Source: Sinorhizobium meliloti 4H41
GTDB taxonomy: Bacteria; Pseudomonadota; Alphaproteobacteria; Rhizobiales; Rhizobiaceae
Assembly: GCF_000375585.1 (NCBI RefSeq)
Contig: NZ_AQWP01000002.1
Location: forward strand, 186,001-250,000
Length of the DNA stretch: 64,000 nt
Direction: 5' to 3'
Made by a program: the position numbers and the translations under genes. Shown here piece by piece: positions 35,417 to 45,447 of this stretch; position 1 is the stretch's first letter, and every line of letters begins with the position of its first letter. The notes beneath the pieces were generated by a model. That model was given only the letters and a program-made list of their open reading frames with translations, ran no database searches and was not told the origin of the DNA.

Positions 35417-36268
35417 TCAGCTGATCTTTGCGGCCAGCATAGCATCGGCCACCGCTAACGCATCCCTGTTGATTGCGACATCGTGTACCCGAAAAATCGC
35501 AGCGCCGGCAGTTCTGAGGAGCGCCGTCGTCGCGGCGGTACCGACGTCGCGGCCTTCCGCCTCTCGGCCCGTCACCGCGCCGACGAAGCGCTTGCGCGAA
35601 GTTCCGACGAGAAGCGGCCGTCGAAACCCATGCAACGCCCTGAAGCGCGCCATCAGTTCGAGGTTCTCGTTCGTGTCCTTCGCGAATCCAAAGCCCGGAT
35701 CGAGCACGACCCGTTCCCGCGCCACGCCGGCGTCGGCGGCGATCTGCAGAGACCGTTCCAGGAAATGGAACTGATCCTCGATCACATCGCTCAGTTTCTC
35801 CCGATCGCGTCCGGTATGCATGATGCAGAGCCCGGCCCCCGTCTCGGCCGCCACGGCCGCGATCGCCGGCTCGCGTTGCAACCCGTGCACGTCGTTGACG
35901 ATGTGGGCGCCGGCGTGAACCGCCAAACGCGCGGTTTCCGCGCGGTAGGTATCGACCGAAATGACGGCCCGGGACTGCCGCGCGATCGCGGCGATAACGG
36001 GCAGAACGCGGGCCTGCTCCTCGTCGGCACTGACCGGTTTGGCGTCGGGTCGCGTGGATTCGCCGCCGATATCCAGGATTTCCGCACCCGCCTCCAATGC
36101 GCGCAGCGCAGCTCTGACAGCAGCGTCGGGATCAGCGAAGCGCCCGCCGTCGGAAAATGAATCCGGTGTAACATTGATGATCGCCATCAAAACGCCACGC
36201 GGGCCCAGTTCGAGATCGCGTCCATGCGCCAATTGCCAGCGACAGGGCTGAAATGGATCGTATGTCAT
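35417..36268 (-). CDS. folP: Dihydropteroate synthase
   Basis: A 283-residue TIM-barrel DHPS, joining p-aminobenzoate and hydroxymethyl-dihydropterin pyrophosphate; it is the sulfonamide target. Motifs are INVTPDSFSDGG, DIGGESTRPDA, ISVDTYRAE and NDVHGL, all in order, with VLDPGFGFAKD and the C-terminal RVHDV. It is the first gene of the folate operon. The ATG at 36268 gives MTYDPFQPCRW. Confidence 0.97.
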   Translation of the reverse strand: MTYDPFQPCRWQLAHGRDLELGPRGVLMAIINVTPDSFSDGGRFADPDAAVRAALRALEAGAEILDIGGESTRPDAKPVSADEEQARVLPVIAAIARQSRAVISVDTYRAETARLAVHAGAHIVNDVHGLQREPAIAAVAAETGAGLCIMHTGRDREKLSDVIEDQFHFLERSLQIAADAGVARERVVLDPGFGFAKDTNENLELMARFRALHGFRRPLLVGTSRKRFVGAVTGREAEGRDVGTAATTALLRTAGAAIFRVHDVAINRDALAVADAMLAAKIS

Positions 36269-36463
36269 TGTTCCGGTCCGCAGCTGAACGGTTTGAATTC
36301 ACCGCCCGTCATGGTGCAAATATATCTTCGAAAGCAACATGTTATGACGCCTTCCTCACACACCTTGCAAGCTTGTCGACGTCGGTTGGGGCCGATTTGT
36401 GTTGCGCTGGCTTTGGCTATGCCCCAAGCTTCAATGAAGTTCAACCGGCGAGAACACCCTTCC

Positions 36464-37099
36464 ATGCCCCGACTCCATATCCCGCTGCGTGCAGCCCTGG
36501 TCGCATTGCTCGTCGGAGTCCCGTTCGGCAATGCCTCGGGCGAGACACTGATCAGCAAGAGAATCTCCTACTTCTCGATCGGCGGGCGCACCGCCGCAGA
36601 ACTCGACAAGGCGCTTTCGGCGTCCGGCCCTATGATGAAGAGCACCGGGACGCGGCATCCGGGCGCCACCCGGATCAAGTTCGGCGGCACGGTCACCTAT
36701 GTTAGTCGTGACGACCGCTGCGCGGTGGGCTCGGCCAAAGTCACGCTCAACACGCGCATCATTCTGCCACGCTGGAAGTATCGTCGACAGGCGGGCCGAG
36801 ATCTCGCCCTGGTCTGGGACACCCTGGCGAGCGACATCAAGCGCCACGAGGAACGCCATGCGGAGATCGCGCGCATTCACGCGCGCCAGATGGAAAAGGC
36901 ACTGCTTTCACTGAAAGCCGAGGACAGTTGCGAGCGCATGCAGGCCCGGGTAGCGGAAGTGAGCGCCGAAGAAGTCGAGCGGCACGACAAGGACCAGGCG
37001 CGCTTCGACCGCACCGAGGCGGCGAATTTCGACCGGCGGATGATCCGGTTGCTGCAATACCGCGTCGAAAGCCTGAAGAAGAACGCCAAGGCCCGCTGA
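36464..37099 (+). CDS. Exported DUF922-type putative Zn-dependent protease
   Basis: A 211-residue exported protein: signal peptide over residues 1-26, then a domain with YFSIGGRTAAELDKAL and the metalloprotease-like HEERH at residues 128-132 (HExxH), which is the hallmark of DUF922. The C-terminal third is a charged helix rich in Glu and Arg. Catalysis is not demonstrated for the family. The start ATG at 36464 was chosen because it gives a clean signal peptide; ATG at 36434 is possible. It is divergent from folP. Confidence 0.78.
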   Translation: MPRLHIPLRAALVALLVGVPFGNASGETLISKRISYFSIGGRTAAELDKALSASGPMMKSTGTRHPGATRIKFGGTVTYVSRDDRCAVGSAKVTLNTRIILPRWKYRRQAGRDLALVWDTLASDIKRHEERHAEIARIHARQMEKALLSLKAEDSCERMQARVAEVSAEEVERHDKDQARFDRTEAANFDRRMIRLLQYRVESLKKNAKAR

Positions 37100-38289: not shown

Positions 38290-38658
38290 TCAACGGCAGA
38301 GTTTCAAAACGAAGAGCTCAGCCTCGAGAACGGCAGCGCCGAGAGCGCTCCGCAGAGCAGCATCGGCGGGACATGTCTCGATGGCGGCTGCAGCCTCGGC
38401 GACCGCGACCGCACCGACCGCGAGAGCCGCCCCCTTCAGACGGTGGGCCTCCTGGCTGCAGGCCTCTGCGTCACGTTCCGCCATCTCGGCCATCGCCTGG
38501 CGTGCCTGACGCGCAAAGAGCTTCAGAACCTCGATCTCGAGCGCCGTGTCCCCCATCGTCTGTCTGTAGAGATGCGCAAGGTCGATGGGATTCCTGCTGG
38601 AGGGAGTGGAACTTGCGGGGATGTCCGGTGCCTCGAAGGCTATTTTGAGTGCCGCCAT
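38290..38658 (-). CDS. Orphan Hpt-domain phosphotransfer protein
   Basis: A 122-residue single-domain histidine phosphotransfer protein. The H-box is EAHRLKGAALAVGA with phospho-accepting His72. No sensor kinase or receiver gene is adjacent. It is divergently oriented to the giant rgsE gene across a 504-nt gap. CckA is a hybrid kinase in this window, but its known phosphotransferase is ChpT, so a link to CckA is speculative. The ATG at 38658 was chosen; the extension to 38757 is unlikely. Confidence 0.85.
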   Translation of the reverse strand: MAALKIAFEAPDIPASSTPSSRNPIDLAHLYRQTMGDTALEIEVLKLFARQARQAMAEMAERDAEACSQEAHRLKGAALAVGAVAVAEAAAAIETCPADAALRSALGAAVLEAELFVLKLCR

Positions 38659-39162
38659 GGGCTCGCTTCCTACAATCGATTTCGCGTAAACAATCGCACC
38701 GTTTTCAAACAGGATTATCGGTGCGCGGCACTGCCATTGACCTAAAACGCGGCGCAATGGAGGCAGAAAAATTGAGGAAATGGTTAACGACCATTAAACC
38801 GGCTGATTCCCTTGGCTTTTCGGGTCCCGAGCGCTCGCTTCCGTTAAGAAATCATTAGGATTTTAATGAATGGGGAACGCTCATAATTGTAAGAGCCCGG
38901 CTAATGTGTCACTACGATACGATTAGGAACGGGTCCGTATATGAAAATGGCAACTGTTCCGGTGGATAAGCTGCGTCCCAAGGTGTCGCAGGGCATAGGC
39001 TGCGGCTATCCATCGAGGCGATGTAATGGGTGATCAGTAAATCTGTGGCTTCGTTGCGAAGCCTGGACCTTGCGGTCACCGCCCTGGTTCGGATGTTCCG
39101 CTGGGCACCTGGCGGCACAGGAAGACGGCCATCATCGGGCAATAGTAGTGAGGCGTATCCGT
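38659..39162. other. Hpt / rgsE divergent intergenic region
   Basis: A 504-nt AT-rich region. It contains a TTAACCAT site on the minus strand (38780-38787) and TTAA-N7-TTAG at about 38844-38858. A 30-codon ORF (38941-39033) with AGGAACG upstream is possible but uncertain. Promoters for both genes should lie here. Confidence 0.5.
38780..38787 (-). promoter_or_regulatory. CtrA-like half-site between Hpt gene and rgsE
   Basis: On the minus strand the sequence reads TTAACCAT, the rhizobial CtrA motif, with more TTAA-rich sequence nearby (CCATTAAACC, and CGTTAAGAAATCATTAGG). A regulatory link of rgsE or the Hpt gene to CtrA is an inference. Confidence 0.35.
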
Positions 39163-42100
39163 ATGGCGACGAAGAAGACCAACGAGTCGATCGACGAAAA
39201 GGCGTTCCAGGCGCTGGAAGCTGCCCTGAAGATCGACTTTGACGACCTGAAGTCGGCCTTGAACGACGAGACTTCCCTGGACGAGCCGGTGCCGGAAAAT
39301 GTGTCCGAGAGTGCCCGCCAGGCCGCCGGTTCCGGTGAGGCCCGCGCCGCACGAACGCAACAGGAAGCTGCGAAGCCCGCGCGCGGCGCCGAAGCACCGC
39401 GCAGTTTTGCGAGCGAAATGGCTCCGAAGCAGCCCCCCCTGGCGCCGGCCAACGATGACACGCGCAAATCCCCAGCCGCCATGCTGCGCTCGCTGGAGGT
39501 CCGCTCGAGCCGCGCGGCAATCCGGGTCGCTGCGATCGTCTCGCTGGTCTGGACAGTGGCCGGACTCGGCGTCGCCCACCTTCTTTATGCGCCCGGGATC
39601 TGGCAGATCCGCTCTCTCGGCGATCTCGCGGCAATGCCTGGAGCGATCGGCATCCTGCTCGGCATCGCCCTGCCCGTCATGCTCTTCTTCTCCTTCGCGA
39701 TCATGATCGCGCGTGCTCAGGAACTGCGCAGCGCCGCGCGTTCGATGGCCGAGGTCGCGATGCGCCTCGCCGAGCCGGAAACCAATGCCGCCGACCGCGT
39801 CATGACGGTCGGTCAGGCCGTGCGCCGCGAAGTCTCGGCGATGAACGAGGGCATCGAGCGCACCATCGCCCGGGCAACCGAGCTCGAAGCGCTCGTGCAT
39901 TCGGAAGTCAGCGCGCTCGAGCGCAGCTACAGCGAAAACGAACTGCGTGTCCGCACGCTCGTCCAGGAGCTCGGTCTCGAACGCGAAGCGATCATCGGCC
40001 ATTCGGATCGGATCCGCACGGCTATCGCTGGCGCGCATACCAAGCTGAAGGACGATCTCGAAACTGCAAGCGAGGACATTGCTTCGCGAATAGCCGTTTC
40101 CGGGGAGGCCTTCGCTTCGCTCATCGATACCCGGGCCGCGGCACTTACCGACAAATCGGACCATGCGCTCGAAAATCTGAGCACCATGCTGACCACCCGG
40201 ACCGACGCATTGCTTTCCGGCCTTACGACCGCCGGAGTGGCGCTCAGCAACGAGTTCGACGCGCGTCTCGATGCGCTCAGCGATAACCTGACGCAGCGTG
40301 GCGAGCAGTTGCTCAGCCAATTCGAAACCCGTGCCTCGACGCTCGACGCCAATACCGAGAAGCTCAACGCCGCCCTGAACGAACGCGCCCGTCAGCTCAA
40401 CGAGACGCTGATCGCCCGGACGCGTGACCTCAATGAGAGCCTCAGGATAGGCCAGCAGGCGATTTCCGGCGGCCTCGACGACGTACTTTCCTCGCTCAAC
40501 TCGGCCCTTGACGAAAAGGGAGCGAGCTTCCGCCAGAGCCTCAAGTCGAGCGCCGACGACGCCATCATGGATCTCGATCTGCGCGGCGGCTTTTTCGAGG
40601 AAAAGCTGCAGACGACGGTCGGCCAGCTTGCAAGCGCCTTCGACGAACGCTTCCACGAATTTGCAAGCGCCTTCGACAAGCGGGCCAGCCAGCTCGACAC
40701 CAAGCTCATGGAAAGCCTCCACCGGATCAACGAGACCGTTTCCGGCGGCTCGGAGGCGATCGGCGGCGCCCTTGACAGCAGCGTGGACAAGATCAATTCG
40801 GCGCTGTCCGACCAGTCGCTCACCCTGGCAACGGCGCTCGGCGCGACGCAGGACTTCATCGAGGAGACGATCGGCAGCCGCACCTCCGAGCTCAGCAGCC
40901 TGATCGGCAACGCGCACAACCGCATCGAGAGCGTGCTTTCGGACAAGACCGGCTCGCTGATGGGCGCGCTGACCGAAGCGCAGGAGCGCATCGAAAACGG
41001 CTTCGGCCAGCGTGCCGATGCGCTTGCCAACGCGCTGACGGCGAGCGAGCGAAGCCTGACGGACGGACTAGACTCCCGTACATCGGCCTTCATCGAGGGC
41101 TTGCAGTCTGCTCATGCCCGCATCGAGCAGACTCTTACCGGCTCCACCGACGAGATCACGAGCGCGATCGCCGCAAGCCAGCATCGGCTCGACAACACGC
41201 TTTCGGAACGGACCGCCGCGCTGTCGACCGCCCTCGCCTCAGGAACAAGCGTCATCGAAAGCGCCGTCGGCGGCACAGCAGAACGGCTTGAGCGTGTCCT
41301 TTCCGAGCGTGGGCAGTCGATCACCGACGCACTGTCCAACCAGACAGCGGCGCTCGACGGCGTGCTCGCCGAGCGCGCGACGCAAATCAATTCCACCATG
41401 TCGGCCCGCGCCAGCGAAATGGCTGACTCGCTAAGCCGTCATGCCGAGGACGTCGCCGACAGCCTTACTTTCCGCGCCATGGCGGTCGCCGAGACCATGA
41501 CCGACCGCGTCGGCGAGATCGAAAACAAGCTTTCGCAGAGCGTCTCCGAAGTCGCCGAAAACCTGGGCGGCCGCGTCAGCCTGATCGCCGATACGCTCAC
41601 CGATACCAGCGCCCGCATTGCCGAGGACCTGAGCAGCCGAGTCGGAAAGATTTCCGAGACGCTGGCCGGTACCAGCGCCGAAATTGCGGAAGCGCTTACC
41701 GCCCGCACGTCGGAAGCAACGGCTTCGCTTGCAGGAAAAGCGGCCGAGATCGAACAGACGCTCACCGGCAGGGCCTCGCACCTTCGCGATACGCTGACGA
41801 CGACGCACGACGAGATCCGTTCGACGCTCGACGACCGGATCACGGCGATCAACCTTGCCGTCGGCCAAGGCCGCGAGCAGCTGGAAGAACTGCTCTCGGA
41901 TCAGTCCATGGCGATGGCAACGACCCTGGCGACCAGCGCCAGCATGCTCGAAATGTCGCTGGAAGAGCGCCAGGCATCGATAGCCGGTGCGATCGAGCGC
42001 AGCACCGAGGCGCTCGCCGCCCGCACGTCGGAAGCAACCGCATCGCTTGCCGACAAGGCCACCGAGATCGATCGGACGCTCTCCGGCAAGGCTGCGCAAC

Positions 42101-45100
42101 TGCGCGACACGCTGGCCACCACCCATGAGCAATTGCGCACGACCCTCGACGATCGGATCAACACCATCAACCTCTCGGTTGGCCAGGGACGCGAGCGTCT
42201 CGAAGAGTTGCTGTCCGACCAGTCGATGGCGATGGCCACCACACTGGCGACCAGCGCCAGCATGCTCGAGATGTCGCTGGAAGAGCGCCAGGCCTCGATC
42301 GCCGGAGCGATCGATCGCAGCGCCGAGGCGCTCGACTCCCGCATGCGCTCGACGACGGGCGAGATTGCGGAACGTCTGGCCGAAACAGCCGATCAGATCA
42401 GTCTGGCGGCCGACACGCTCACCAATCGCGTCGACATTTCGATCAGCGGCGTCAATAGCCGCCTCGACGAAACCGGCGCGCGCATCGAGACAAGCCTCGG
42501 TTCGCTCGAAGAACGCATCCGCGGCAGCGTCGGCGACGTCGACGCCATTCTCGGCGAAACCGGCGCACGCATCGAAACGAGCCTCGGCTCCCTCGAAGAG
42601 CGCATCCGCGGCAGCGTGGGCGATGTCGACGCCATTCTCGGTGATACCGGCGCGCGCATCGAAACGAGCCTCGGCTCCCTCGAGGAGCGCATCCGCGACA
42701 GCGTCGGCAGCGTCAATGCGATCGTCGACAATGCCGGCCAGCGGATCGCCGACAGCCTGGGTGAGCGCGCAGGCGAAATCGACCGGATCAGCGAGGCTGC
42801 GGCAACGCGCATATCGACTGCCATCGAAGCCGGCACGGGCCGGATCGAGGAGCGGCTCGGCACGATGGATCGGGCCCTCAATATCGGACTCGACAACGTA
42901 AACCGCACGATCGAGGGGAAAGCTGCGGCGCTCGTAACCAGCCTTCGTGGTGCCGTCAGCGACGCCACCCAGGAGATCGACGCGGAAGCCGCCCGGTCGG
43001 CCGGGCTCCTGTCCAAGGCCGGCGCCGACTTCGCGGGTGCGCTCGCCGCGAGCAATGCCGAATTTGCATCGTCGATCGAGCAAACCGCATCGGCCACGGC
43101 AGCACGCCACGCCGATCTCGCCCGCTCGGTCGCGGAAGCCGCGGACACGGCGACCGCCCGATTGGCCTCGACCAACAGCCAGATCGCGACCCATGCCAAG
43201 AGCATTCAGCAGAGCCTGACAGAGGCGGAGAAAGCGCTCGATGCGCGCGGCCAGTCCATCCGCAGCACGCTCGACGAAAGCACCCGCGAACTCAACTCGA
43301 TGCTTGCCGGGCGCTCGATGGAACTGTCGCGTCTTCTCGACGAGCAGGCTCGCCCTGTCATCGAACAATACGCCGCCACCGGCAAGGAGGCCGCCGAACG
43401 CATCGCTTCCCTCACCCAGGAAAGCGCCGACCGCCTGCGTGCCGAAAACGCCGCGCTCATCAACGCCATCACCGAACGGACCGGCGAGACGCTCGACGCC
43501 ATCTCGTTGCGTGCGGAAGAGACCGCCAAGGCGATGAAAATGGTCGAGAACCGGCTGCAGTCGACGGCCATGGGCCTGATCGACCAGCTTGCGTCGAGCA
43601 ATTCGGCGATCGCCACGGTCATCGACCAGGCGAGCGGCAATCTCGGAGATATGGACCAGCGGCTCGAGGCGACCGCCGCAAAGGTCTCGGAAACGGCGCG
43701 GCAGGCCTCCGACATGCTCTCCACCTCGACCCGCCTGATCGAAGGCAAAGTCGACAAGCTGTCGGACATTTCCTCCTCGACATTGTCGCAGATCGGCGGC
43801 ATCGTCGGCCGCTTCGAAGACCATTCGAAGGTTCTCGGACGGGCTTCCGACCTCCTGGCGGCCGCCCAGTCGAACCTTGTGAGCACGCTCGAAGAGCGCC
43901 AGGACGCGCTTCGGACACTCTCGGTCGGCCTCGTCCAGCGTTCGGAGGAGATCGAGCGGACCATGCGTGCGCTCGAGGGCTTCGTCGACGGCGCCTTCCA
44001 GCGCGCCGAGGAACGCTCCGGTCAGGTTGCCGGCAACCTGCGCAGCGGGATCCAAACCTCCTTCGCCGATGTGGGCCGACTGCTGTCGAACACCGAACAG
44101 CGGGCAACCGAGGCGGCAGAGGCCCTGCGCGATACGCTTGTGAAGGCGAGCGATGAAGCCGCCGCTTCGGTCGAAGGGGTCTTCTCGCAGGCCGAGGAAC
44201 GCTCACGCCAGATCGCCGACAGACTGCGCTCCGGCGTCGAGACGTCCTTCGCCGACGCAAACAAGACGCTTTCGCAGGTCGAAGGACGTGCACTCAGCGC
44301 CTCCGAGGCCCTGCGGCAAGTCGTGGCAAAGACCGGCGAGGAAGCCGGCCAGGCGCTCGAAGGCGCGTTCGCCACCGTGGAAGAGCGTGCCAAGGACGCG
44401 GCCTCGCGGCTGCGCGGCAGTATCGGTGCGTCGGTCTCCGACGTCGAGCGTATGCTGGCCGAGAGCGGCAAGAAGTCCGATGGCGTCGCAGCACAGTTGC
44501 GCGAAGCCGTCCGCCAGGCGATCGAGGATGCGATCGGCCGTTTCAACGGCGCAACCGACGACATCCGTCGTTCCGCCGGCGAAATCCGCAAGGAACTCGA
44601 CATGACGCGCGAAGAATTGAAGCGCGGCGCTTTCGACCTTCCGGAAGAGGCCAAGGAAAATGCCGCGCTGATGCGGCGCGCCGTCGGCGAACAGATCAAG
44701 GCGCTGCAGGAACTGTCCGAGATCATCGGCAAGTCTTCCTCGCAGCTCGAAGTCGCCCAGCCGGTTCGCCAGCAGGAAGCCCCCGCTGCCCCGGCAGCCC
44801 GCGTCGTCGCGCCACAAGCCGTCGCACCGCAGTCATCGCTGCCGCAAGCCGCCGTGCCGCAACCTGCCGCACCGCAGCCGGCTCCGAATGCCGCTCTGCG
44901 CGGAAGCCTGGGCATAGAGCAGGCCACCCGCCCGCTGCAGCCTGCCCGGCCGCCGGCAACGGAGGAACGCGCCGAAGAGGGCGGCGGCTGGATGCGCGAT
45001 CTCCTGCGCGCGGCTTCCCGCGAGGAAGAGCCTGCAGCGGCGCGGCCGCGCTCGGCGGAAAGCCAACCGGTGGCAAAAGCCGGCGACAGCCGCAACCCTC

Positions 45101-45447
45101 GCCATGTGGTCGAGTCGCTGAATTCGCTCTCGGTGGACATCGCGCGTGCGATCGACCACGACGCCTCCGTCGAGCTTTGGCGTCGCTATCAGCGCGGCGA
45201 ACGGGACGTCTTCACCCGCCGCCTCTACACGCTGAAGGGGCAGCAGACCTTCGACGAAATCAAGCGCAAATATGATCGCGAACCGGAGTTCCGCACCGCC
45301 GTCGACCGCTATATCGCCGACTTCGAGAAGCTGCTCGCCGATGTCGCGCGCAACGATCCCGACAAGCGCATCACACAGACCTACCTGACGTCCGATACGG
45401 GCAAGGTCTACACGATGCTTGCCCACGCGGCAGGGCGCTTCAGCTGA
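39163..45447 (+). CDS. rgsE: Growth-pole ring protein RgsE/GPR, giant coiled-coil membrane protein
   Basis: A 2,094-residue protein: acidic cytosolic N-terminus with Pro/Ala-rich linker, two membrane helices at residues 118-142 and 158-184, then about 1,600 residues of apolipoprotein-like helical repeats dominated by patterns such as LDERG, ISETLAGTSAEI and LSSRVG, and a Pro/Ala/Gln-rich linker before a conserved C-terminal domain (SLSVDIARAIDHDASVELWRRYQRGE). This matches the size and layout of Agrobacterium GPR and Sinorhizobium RgsE, which form a ring at the growing pole and are essential for polar growth. The ATG at 39163 was chosen; GTG at 39148 is possible. Tandem repeats are described separately. 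Confidence 0.85.
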   Translation: MATKKTNESIDEKAFQALEAALKIDFDDLKSALNDETSLDEPVPENVSESARQAAGSGEARAARTQQEAAKPARGAEAPRSFASEMAPKQPPLAPANDDTRKSPAAMLRSLEVRSSRAAIRVAAIVSLVWTVAGLGVAHLLYAPGIWQIRSLGDLAAMPGAIGILLGIALPVMLFFSFAIMIARAQELRSAARSMAEVAMRLAEPETNAADRVMTVGQAVRREVSAMNEGIERTIARATELEALVHSEVSALERSYSENELRVRTLVQELGLEREAIIGHSDRIRTAIAGAHTKLKDDLETASEDIASRIAVSGEAFASLIDTRAAALTDKSDHALENLSTMLTTRTDALLSGLTTAGVALSNEFDARLDALSDNLTQRGEQLLSQFETRASTLDANTEKLNAALNERARQLNETLIARTRDLNESLRIGQQAISGGLDDVLSSLNSALDEKGASFRQSLKSSADDAIMDLDLRGGFFEEKLQTTVGQLASAFDERFHEFASAFDKRASQLDTKLMESLHRINETVSGGSEAIGGALDSSVDKINSALSDQSLTLATALGATQDFIEETIGSRTSELSSLIGNAHNRIESVLSDKTGSLMGALTEAQERIENGFGQRADALANALTASERSLTDGLDSRTSAFIEGLQSAHARIEQTLTGSTDEITSAIAASQHRLDNTLSERTAALSTALASGTSVIESAVGGTAERLERVLSERGQSITDALSNQTAALDGVLAERATQINSTMSARASEMADSLSRHAEDVADSLTFRAMAVAETMTDRVGEIENKLSQSVSEVAENLGGRVSLIADTLTDTSARIAEDLSSRVGKISETLAGTSAEIAEALTARTSEATASLAGKAAEIEQTLTGRASHLRDTLTTTHDEIRSTLDDRITAINLAVGQGREQLEELLSDQSMAMATTLATSASMLEMSLEERQASIAGAIERSTEALAARTSEATASLADKATEIDRTLSGKAAQLRDTLATTHEQLRTTLDDRINTINLSVGQGRERLEELLSDQSMAMATTLATSASMLEMSLEERQASIAGAIDRSAEALDSRMRSTTGEIAERLAETADQISLAADTLTNRVDISISGVNSRLDETGARIETSLGSLEERIRGSVGDVDAILGETGARIETSLGSLEERIRGSVGDVDAILGDTGARIETSLGSLEERIRDSVGSVNAIVDNAGQRIADSLGERAGEIDRISEAAATRISTAIEAGTGRIEERLGTMDRALNIGLDNVNRTIEGKAAALVTSLRGAVSDATQEIDAEAARSAGLLSKAGADFAGALAASNAEFASSIEQTASATAARHADLARSVAEAADTATARLASTNSQIATHAKSIQQSLTEAEKALDARGQSIRSTLDESTRELNSMLAGRSMELSRLLDEQARPVIEQYAATGKEAAERIASLTQESADRLRAENAALINAITERTGETLDAISLRAEETAKAMKMVENRLQSTAMGLIDQLASSNSAIATVIDQASGNLGDMDQRLEATAAKVSETARQASDMLSTSTRLIEGKVDKLSDISSSTLSQIGGIVGRFEDHSKVLGRASDLLAAAQSNLVSTLEERQDALRTLSVGLVQRSEEIERTMRALEGFVDGAFQRAEERSGQVAGNLRSGIQTSFADVGRLLSNTEQRATEAAEALRDTLVKASDEAAASVEGVFSQAEERSRQIADRLRSGVETSFADANKTLSQVEGRALSASEALRQVVAKTGEEAGQALEGAFATVEERAKDAASRLRGSIGASVSDVERMLAESGKKSDGVAAQLREAVRQAIEDAIGRFNGATDDIRRSAGEIRKELDMTREELKRGAFDLPEEAKENAALMRRAVGEQIKALQELSEIIGKSSSQLEVAQPVRQQEAPAAPAARVVAPQAVAPQSSLPQAAVPQPAAPQPAPNAALRGSLGIEQATRPLQPARPPATEERAEEGGGWMRDLLRAASREEEPAAARPRSAESQPVAKAGDSRNPRHVVESLNSLSVDIARAIDHDASVELWRRYQRGERDVFTRRLYTLKGQQTFDEIKRKYDREPEFRTAVDRYIADFEKLLADVARNDPDKRITQTYLTSDTGKVYTMLAHAAGRFS
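41692..42327 (+). repeat. Two tandem 318-bp units within rgsE
   Basis: Units 41692-42009 and 42010-42327 encode 106 residues each, nearly identical over the segment ELLSDQSMAMATTLATSASM and the following MLEMSLEERQASIAGAI. The codon-level match shows a recent internal duplication. Confidence 0.9.
42469..42729 (+). repeat. Three tandem 87-bp units within rgsE
   Basis: Each unit of 29 residues reads (E/D)TGARIETSLGSLEERIR-SVG-V-AI. Boundaries at 42469, 42556 and 42643. The last is slightly diverged. Confidence 0.92.

What the first reader, a model, noticed from the sequence alone, without database searches (positions are those of the whole stretch)
39163..45447. Giant polar-growth protein RgsE/GPR with membrane anchor
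A 2,094-residue coiled-coil protein with two membrane helices matches the known growth-pole ring protein of Rhizobiales (Agrobacterium GPR, Sinorhizobium RgsE). The repeat-rich rod and conserved C-terminal domain suggest a ring-forming scaffold, and no catalytic domain is visible. This is the most unusual single gene in the window.
Basis: partly seen in the sequence, partly recalled or inferred. Interest (0 to 1): 0.7.

Follow-up and report, generated by a model that had tools for sequence, protein, structure and literature searches.

The report
Rhizobial growth-pole ring scaffold protein
This is the Sinorhizobium copy of a known giant protein that organises one-ended cell growth in rhizobia, and its long rod follows an 11-residue beat that evolution rarely breaks.

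Summary
Window 39163-45447 (+) encodes one 2,094-residue protein in a Sinorhizobium/Ensifer genome. The gene is single copy, has two predicted membrane helices and a conserved C-terminal domain, and its genome lacks MreB. As a gene this is ordinary orthology.

The new part is the rod. It is not a heptad coiled coil: its hydrophobic stripe repeats every 3.655 residues (near 11/3, hendecad). Indels between relatives keep that phase. In 38 Rhizobiaceae pairs none of 48 rod indels is 10 residues or less, against 73 of 78 in the adjacent linker; 14 hold-out pairs repeat this less cleanly. One stripe flank is basic, the other neutral to weakly acidic, which mildly favours a parallel oligomer over an apolipoprotein-like fold-back. 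None of 38 other-order relatives has an 11/3 rod. The C-terminal domain matches no Pfam or NCBIfam family, yet occurs in 114 of 289 alphaproteobacteria. A link between MreB loss and rod length failed a tree-based test.

The parts
39163..45447 (+). rgsE/gpr orthologue, 2094 aa, start ATG 39163, stop 45445-45447
   Evidence: 41.3% to 2115-aa GPR, full length; single match in own genome
39150..39153 (+). Shine-Dalgarno-like GAGG, 9 nt before ATG
   Evidence: sequence printed; its role is inference
39163..39507 (+). N-terminal region, residues 1-115: conserved ESIDxxAFxALExAL stretch (about residues 8-22), then a low-confidence stretch
   Evidence: pLDDT under 50 at 23-114
39508..39732 (+). two membrane helices (TM1 about residues 116-142, TM2 about 161-185) as a hairpin
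   Evidence: hydropathy; AlphaFold2
39733..44472 (+). rod, residues 191-1770: hydrophobic stripe period 3.655 (hendecad, near 11/3); about 237 nm if one helix at 0.15 nm per residue
   Evidence: Fourier; wheel and length; AlphaFold2 helix 208-470 unbroken
40828..43578 (+). expandable middle of the rod (about residues 556-1472): zone in which the 48 rod indels between Rhizobiaceae orthologues fall (0.24-0.83 of rod length)
   Evidence: positions; lengths; borders are an estimate mapped onto the window
41689..42306 (+). tandem duplication, two 300-nt copies spaced 318 nt (106 aa), 80% identical
   Evidence: family D2
42376..42761 (+). four copies of an 87-nt (29-aa) unit
   Evidence: family D1
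43360..44472 (+). C-terminal rod segment (residues about 1400-1770) of mixed period, main peak 3.605, second peak 3.655
44641..45057 (+). proline/alanine-rich linker, residues about 1827-1965
   Evidence: proline positions; short irregular indels
45091..45444 (+). conserved C-terminal domain, 118 aa, predicted all-helical, no Pfam or NCBIfam family

Best explanation
This is the Sinorhizobium orthologue of RgsE/GPR, the membrane-anchored cytoplasmic scaffold of the growing pole. SHOWN HERE: full-length orthology, single copy, MreB-less genome, two predicted membrane helices, one nearly proline-free helical rod of about 1,580 residues with an 11/3 repeat, and rod length changes that mostly keep the helical phase. 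PUBLISHED FOR ORTHOLOGUES: growth-pole localisation, a 200-nm ring of six foci in Agrobacterium, two-hybrid signals of RgsE with TolQ, RgsA and RgsS, loss of normal shape without it. INFERRED: the N-terminal hairpin anchors the protein in the inner membrane. The rods associate side by side, in parallel and in register, as a right-handed hendecad bundle held by the narrow hydrophobic stripe and helped by a basic flank meeting a neutral-to-acidic one. The invariant C-terminal domain, carried on a flexible proline-rich linker, docks partners. The rod must stay in helical phase along its length, which is why it grows or shrinks almost only by whole helical repeats. Identity is about 0.98 likely, pole scaffold by orthology about 0.9, the parallel hendecad bundle about 0.5.
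For: Orthology. Hendecad. Phase-locked indels: 48 rod indels in 38 disjoint Rhizobiaceae pairs, 0 of 10 or less, 30 multiples of 11, mean cosine 0.91 at 3.655. MAFFT gives 47 with 0 of 10 or less; gap costs -11/-1 give 49 with 0. Hold-out of 14 pairs from 9 other groups: 51 rod indels, 28 multiples of 11, best period 3.65, mean cosine 0.73. Linker control: 73 of 78 are 10 or less, cosine -0.13; hold-out linker 27 of 30. Wheel: within 30 degrees of the stripe centre 83-91% ILVMF and no charge; flank -90 to -30 degrees 20-26% K/R with 2-4% D/E; on the other side 30-60 degrees is neutral and 60-180 degrees has 23-30% D/E. The flank difference is positive in 33 of 33 hendecad rods (median net charge per residue +0.13 against -0.04). 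AlphaFold2 predicts unbroken helices 208-470 and 478-619.
Against: No experiment on this protein. Oligomer state and direction are inferred from flank charges alone, and the second flank is close to neutral (median -0.04); in the other two period classes the flank difference is zero or negative in 13 of 60 rods. No complex was modelled. The AlphaFold2 model has mean pLDDT 64.7 and pTM 0.20. With soft gap costs (-8/-1) 6 of 59 rod indels are 10 or less. In the hold-out 10 of 51 are 10 or less; 9 of these come from the two pairs under 50% identity. The phase model fits published deletions only partly: both 20-aa deletions are out of phase by about 130-157 degrees at period 3.655, yet the A-IV-1 one complemented well, and the values shift with the period chosen and with whether 20, 21 or 22 residues were removed. 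Many indels may be slippage between existing 33-nt or 87-nt repeats.
Confidence: 0.6

Rival explanations
1. Published view: the rod is a string of apolipoprotein-A-IV-like domains that fold back on themselves and sort or bind lipids at the pole.
For: PF01442 matches at E 3.2e-77 in 11 stretches; the only solved relatives by sequence at E 0.001 are two apolipoprotein A-IV chains (9hx4 E 6.5e-5, 3s84 E 2.3e-4); SWISS-MODEL similarity and deletion phenotypes in PMC8262873.
Against: PF01442 is itself an 11-residue-repeat model (recalled), so the match may be shared periodicity. The stripe is narrow (about 60 degrees) and only one flank is basic, not both as in lipid-binding class A helices (recalled). 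Net rod charge is -91. It has 2 prolines in 1,580 residues (positions 205 and 1398). The paper's argument that the helix must fold because it would be 600 nm long implies about 0.35 nm per residue; at 0.15 nm per residue 1,700 residues give 255 nm.
Confidence: 0.27
2. The quantised indels are only a mutational effect: 33-nt and 87-nt repeats slip or recombine in whole units, with no selection for phase.
For: 30 of 48 rod indels are multiples of 11, and the window carries 87-nt and 318-nt tandem units; 12 of the 48 are exactly 29 residues, as if one array changed copy number repeatedly.
Against: Slippage explains why whole units occur, not why short ones are missing: 0 of 48 rod indels are 10 or less over 61,518 pair-residues, against 73 of 78 in 7,220 linker pair-residues of the same pairs. 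Lengths 15, 18, 29 and 40, not multiples of 11, lie within about 40 degrees of phase.
Confidence: 0.2
3. The rods are lone amphipathic helices lying flat on the inner membrane around the pole, an 11/3 helix being also the form of perilipin- and synuclein-type membrane binders (recalled).
For: Period 3.655 is close to that of 11/3 membrane helices; the stripe has one basic flank.
Against: Net rod charge -91, lysine only 2.5% of the protein, and a stripe filled with large aliphatics rather than Ala/Thr/Val.
Confidence: 0.13

Closest known systems
RgsE (SMc00190) of Sinorhizobium meliloti
   Same: Same genus and length class (2094 against 2089 aa); the same-genus orthologue L022 is 2089 aa, 88.1% identical to the window protein and 41.6% to GPR; published RgsE-GPR identity is 42%.
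   Different: Rod differs by indels.
GPR (Atu1348) of Agrobacterium tumefaciens/fabrum C58
   Same: 41.3% identity over the full length, 1544 bits; similar N-terminal motif, rod period 3.66, proline-rich linker, C-terminal domain.
   Different: 2115 aa; rod diverged.
TipN of Caulobacter crescentus (882 aa)
   Same: Papers call GPR similar or analogous to TipN (passages); TipN is reported to interact with Tol-Pal (passage) and RgsE with TolQ. Relatives with this C-terminal domain and a hairpin, some 700-900 aa long, occur in other orders.
   Different: Other-order rods mostly have period about 3.57 (25/7), not 11/3, and little length change between congeners. TipN itself was not fetched.
Apolipoprotein A-I/A-IV/E (PF01442)
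   Same: 11-residue amphipathic helical repeat (recalled for apolipoproteins); Pfam E 3.2e-77.
   Different: Membrane hairpin, almost no proline in the rod, one basic flank only, 2,094 aa, own C-terminal domain.
ZorA tail (anti-phage Zorya, NF033914)
   Same: Sub-threshold match to the rod, E 3.1e-20, 72 bits against a cut-off of 190; a long helical tail behind membrane helices (recalled).
   Different: Below the family cut-off; no MotA/TolQ-type domain reported by Pfam here.

Membership tests
RgsE/GPR | full-length sequence homology to GPR | tested here: met
RgsE/GPR | about 2,100 residues, two N-terminal membrane helices, bulk helical | tested here: met
   (predictions)
RgsE/GPR | multiple PF01442 matches over the rod | tested here: met
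   11 stretches, E 3.2e-77
RgsE/GPR | proline-rich/low-complexity linker and conserved C terminus | tested here: met
   prolines 1827-1962 and C-terminal domain
RgsE/GPR | single gene in an MreB-less member of the order | tested here: met
   one match; no MreB at E 1e-20 in G000
RgsE/GPR | ring of six foci at the growing pole; shape loss on depletion | not testable with these tools
   published for orthologues only
canonical (heptad) coiled coil | hydrophobic period 3.5 | tested here: not met
   power 0.6 at 3.5 against 70 at 3.655
hendecad coiled coil | hydrophobic period 11/3 over a long proline-poor helix | tested here: met
   oligomeric packing not tested
apolipoprotein A-I/A-IV/E | profile match above Pfam cut-off | tested here: met
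   259 bits against a cut-off of 90
apolipoprotein A-I/A-IV/E | lipid-binding amphipathic helices with basic residues on both flanks (recalled) | tested here: not met
   basic on one flank; the other neutral, then acidic; lipid binding itself untested
TipN | shared C-terminal domain with Caulobacter TipN | tested here: inconclusive
   domain found in other-order relatives of TipN-like size, but no named TipN was fetched; MreB of one such genome differs visibly from chain 4cze, recalled to be Caulobacter MreB

The most novel reading that the evidence does not exclude
RgsE/GPR is a length-evolvable molecular ruler. A parallel hendecad bundle of about 240 nm, close to the 200-nm ring diameter, links the membrane anchor to an ancient C-terminal docking domain. 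In the window's order the rod changed from the nearly fixed-length 25/7 type found in most other alphaproteobacteria to an expandable 11/3 type whose middle is lengthened or shortened in phase, so rod length may set the ring radius or stand-off, and with it the width of the polar growth zone, in each species.
Probability: 0.2. Interest if true: 0.75.

Novelty: already known. Interest (0 to 1): 0.45.

Why it matters
How one-ended growers without MreB keep a rod shape is an open question, and GPR/RgsE is a leading scaffold candidate. If the rod is a phase-locked hendecad bundle rather than a folded apolipoprotein, then its helical length (about 240-255 nm, not 600 nm), the effect of deletions and the species differences in length become directly testable with simple in-frame removals. 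The C-terminal domain, not in Pfam or NCBIfam, would give a handle on a widespread alphaproteobacterial pole factor.

Tried and rejected
Heptad coiled coil: rejected. Long antisense ORFs as genes: no support sought beyond the listing; they look like a GC by-product. A catalytic domain: none in Pfam at E 0.1; the NCBIfam rod hits are below their cut-offs. Structural relatives of the C-terminal domain: 0 PDB folds at E 0.001 or better for a model of pLDDT 76.8. MreB loss driving rod length: in raw counts MreB-less members of the order have longer rods (38 against 16 genomes, medians 1385.5 and 571.5, Mann-Whitney p 2e-5; period p 6e-4). That sample took about one genome per family plus 16 of the 18 MreB-bearing ones (2 left out for short frames). 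On a C-terminal-domain tree only 4 starred independent pairs exist within the order (rod length: mean 2.0 agree, 0.0 oppose, 2.0 no difference, median p 0.5; period: 0.7, 0.5, 2.8, median p 1). Over all rows there are 6 pairs (rod length: 2.0, 0.9, 3.1; period: 0.7, 0.5, 4.7; median p 1). The tree is short and poorly resolved, so I do not claim the link. Helical phase as explanation of the published deletion phenotypes: both 20-aa deletions come out of phase by 130-157 degrees and the whole-domain ones by 63-88 degrees at period 3.655, but the ranking fits A-IV-4 and not A-IV-1, the values change with period and exact deletion length, and the noise is large (no-deletion control: median 18, 90th percentile 82 degrees). 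Naming other-order genomes as Caulobacter through MreB: five MreB proteins all hit chain 4cze first, and the one alignment shown is clearly not identical, so no name was given. First run of the hold-out indel test chose the longest frame; 3 of 32 loci (L208, L264, L266) then had another length in the corrected run, and two pairs aligned at 26-27% identity; one search replaced it with frames chosen by the C-terminal profile. Other-order control: 12 pairs from 12 families; of the 11 at 0.48 identity or more, 10 have no rod indel and one has two (3 and 325; frame probably truncated); the pair at 0.33 has six. Literature searches on SMc00189/fbcC gave nothing of use.
Full report
OBSERVATION. The frame 39163-45447 (+) codes for 2,094 residues. 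The start is supported by a GAGG 9 nt upstream (sequence) and by the similar N terminus of most Rhizobiaceae orthologues. The gene gives a single match in its own genome (G000, 6.79 Mb). Hydropathy gives two membrane segments, and AlphaFold2 of residues 1-620 on an alignment of 31 sequences gives helices 116-142 and 161-203, then unbroken helices 208-470 and 478-619 (mean pLDDT 64.7, pTM 0.20, so only the secondary structure is used). Pfam finds PF01442 in 11 stretches (E 3.2e-77) and no enzyme domain.

IDENTITY. The unnamed same-genus orthologue L022 is 2,089 aa, the published length of S. meliloti RgsE, and is 88.1% identical to the window protein over 2,063 aligned residues. GPR was recovered from genome G748: its contig is 2,841,580 bases (the length I recall for the C58 circular chromosome) and the ORF from MANNKISDSV is exactly 2,115 aa, the published GPR length. 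BLASTP of the window protein against it: 41.3% identity, residues 1-2094 on 1-2115, 1544 bits, E 0. L022 against GPR is 41.6%; the paper reports 42% for RgsE against GPR (passages).

SURROUNDINGS. Upstream lie an Hpt-domain gene (38290-38757, -), DUF922 (36224-37099, +), dihydropteroate synthase and HPPK genes; downstream cytochrome c1 and cytochrome b genes, convergent. In 77 named complete Rhizobiaceae-type loci, Hpt is found in 75, DUF922 in 74, the synthase in 74, HPPK in 35, cytochrome c1 in 15 (loci reach about 10 kb to either side of the C-terminal match, so the far upstream genes can be cut off).

THE ROD. Over residues 190-1770 the large aliphatics (ILVMF) peak at period 3.655 with power 75.3, with further peaks at 5.5, and at about 11 in sub-windows; the maximum over 100 shuffles is 12.0. 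That is an 11-residue (hendecad) repeat; the heptad period 3.5 has power 0.6. A phase-tracked helical wheel shows a stripe about 60 degrees wide with 83-91% ILVMF and no charge. The flank at -90 to -30 degrees has 20-26% K/R and 2-4% D/E. The opposite flank is neutral at 30-60 degrees (4% D/E, 2% K/R) and acidic from 60 to 180 degrees (23-30% D/E). Over 93 rods the flank difference is positive in 33 of 33 hendecad rods (median net charge per residue +0.13 against -0.04) and zero or negative in 13 of the other 60. In parallel cyclic bundles one flank of a chain faces the other flank of its neighbour, whereas in antiparallel hairpins like faces like; unlike flanks therefore mildly favour parallel association (inference). 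At 0.15 nm per residue the rod would be about 237 nm. The published statement that GPR's 1,700-residue helical domain would be 600 nm extended and so must fold (PMC8262873) implies about 0.35 nm per residue; the helical value is 255 nm.

PHASE-LOCKED INDELS. From 91 Rhizobiaceae-type orthologues I made 38 disjoint pairs (76 sequences; 15 left unpaired by the similarity limits). Inside the rod 48 indels were found, of lengths 11, 15, 18, 22, 29, 44, 66, 69, 77, 88, 109, 132 and 176; none is 10 or less, 30 are multiples of 11, and the best common period is 3.66 with mean cosine 0.92. In the proline-rich linker of the same pairs 73 of 78 indels are 10 or less and show no such period. MAFFT and a second gap scheme give the same picture; soft gap costs (-8/-1) let in 6 of 59 short ones. 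All 48 lie between 0.24 and 0.83 of the rod. A hold-out of 14 disjoint pairs (28 of 32 loci) from 9 groups (eight other families of the order and Agrobacterium) gave 51 rod indels, 28 multiples of 11, best period 3.65, mean cosine 0.73; 10 are 10 or less, 9 of them in the two pairs under 50% identity. A first version of that test used wrong frames for 3 of 32 loci and was discarded. In 12 other-order pairs, 10 of the 11 pairs at 0.48 identity or more have no rod indel. Slippage between repeats can supply whole units, but it does not explain the missing short indels.

FAMILY-WIDE VIEW. The C-terminal 118 residues match nothing at a credible level in Pfam or NCBIfam (best E 0.022 and 0.011 among 13 members; PHROGs and PADLOC were not searched) and no solved fold at E 0.001. 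A profile of them finds 114 of 289 sampled alphaproteobacterial genomes, one copy each except one genome with two, and 146 of 150 in the window's order. MreB is present in 271 of the same 289, in 107 of the 114 domain carriers (my comparison of the tables), and in 18 of 150 in the order, all 18 of which carry the domain. So the domain is much wider than MreB-less growth. Of 93 full rods measured, period 3.64 or more occurs in 29 of 38 MreB-less and 4 of 16 MreB-bearing members of the order and in 0 of 38 from other orders; one order member has unknown MreB status (3.625). Other orders cluster near 3.57 (25/7). In most of the long order rods looked at in windows the last 200-400 residues have a shorter period (about 3.6) than the middle, which is near 3.66; in the window's own protein this segment is mixed. 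The association of long rods with MreB loss is visible in raw counts but not supported on independent tree pairs.

MECHANISM. Published: GPR forms a 200-nm ring of six foci about 100 nm from the tip and is needed to focus wall synthesis (PMC8262873, parts 1-4 of 6 read); RgsE gives two-hybrid signals with TolQ, RgsA and RgsS and is dispensable but important for shape and growth (PMC7327166, passages); the Brucella homologue is also at the new pole (PMC9938171, passages). Caulobacter TipN is reported to interact with Tol-Pal (PMC7403779, passages), and papers call GPR similar or analogous to TipN (PMC8546619 and PMC13170164, passages). Inferred: anchored hairpin, parallel hendecad bundle, linker, docking domain. 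In PMC8262873 C-terminal deletions of 10 and 332 residues impair function but leave paired foci, while the 221-residue deletion loses them in the complementation assay; this fits a docking role for the C terminus and assembly through the rest, though not simply.

NOVELTY. The gene is an orthologue of a characterised protein in its own genus: already known. In the held library 0 of the 8 papers holding two of 'hendecad', 'apolipoprotein', 'growth pole ring' contain 'hendecad'; a search on RgsE/polar growth/TipN/apolipoprotein/Rhizobiales since 2022 listed 6 papers, and one on hendecad/bacterial/right-handed coiled coil/TipN listed 15 of 389; by title and abstract start none of those listed makes the point about GPR. 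The library lacks most subscription papers; the 2019 PNAS paper on GPR was not read.

LIMITS. Membrane helices are by hydropathy and one low-confidence model. Class and order samples are one genome per species, drawn evenly, unnamed. Rod borders are set by rule (proline density and hydropathy). Apolipoprotein, ZorA, perilipin and coiled-coil rules cited as 'recalled' come from no call.

Noticed in passing
window:45091-45444: The C-terminal 118-aa domain has no Pfam or NCBIfam family but occurs in 114 of 289 alphaproteobacterial genomes, 107 of them with MreB, one copy each except one genome with two.
   Followed up: partly
window:38290-38757: An Hpt-domain (phosphotransfer) gene on the minus strand sits near rgsE in 75 of 77 named Rhizobiaceae-type loci; its partner is unknown.
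   Followed up: partly
window:46183-48542: Cytochrome c1 and b genes lie downstream, convergent with rgsE; found within reach in 15 of 77 named loci.
   Followed up: partly
window:39733-44472: NCBIfam ZorA_1 matches the rod below its cut-off (E 3.1e-20, 72 of 190 bits), hinting that the ZorA tail and this rod share an 11-residue geometry.
   Followed up: no
L168 and L169 (other-order relatives): Two other-order families have long rods (1,858 and 1,773 aa) of mixed local period between 3.56 and 3.66, which may be intermediates between the 25/7 and 11/3 types.
   Followed up: no
PMC8262873, conclusions: The paper gives 600 nm for an extended 1,700-residue helical domain; at 0.15 nm per residue a helix is 255 nm.
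   Followed up: yes
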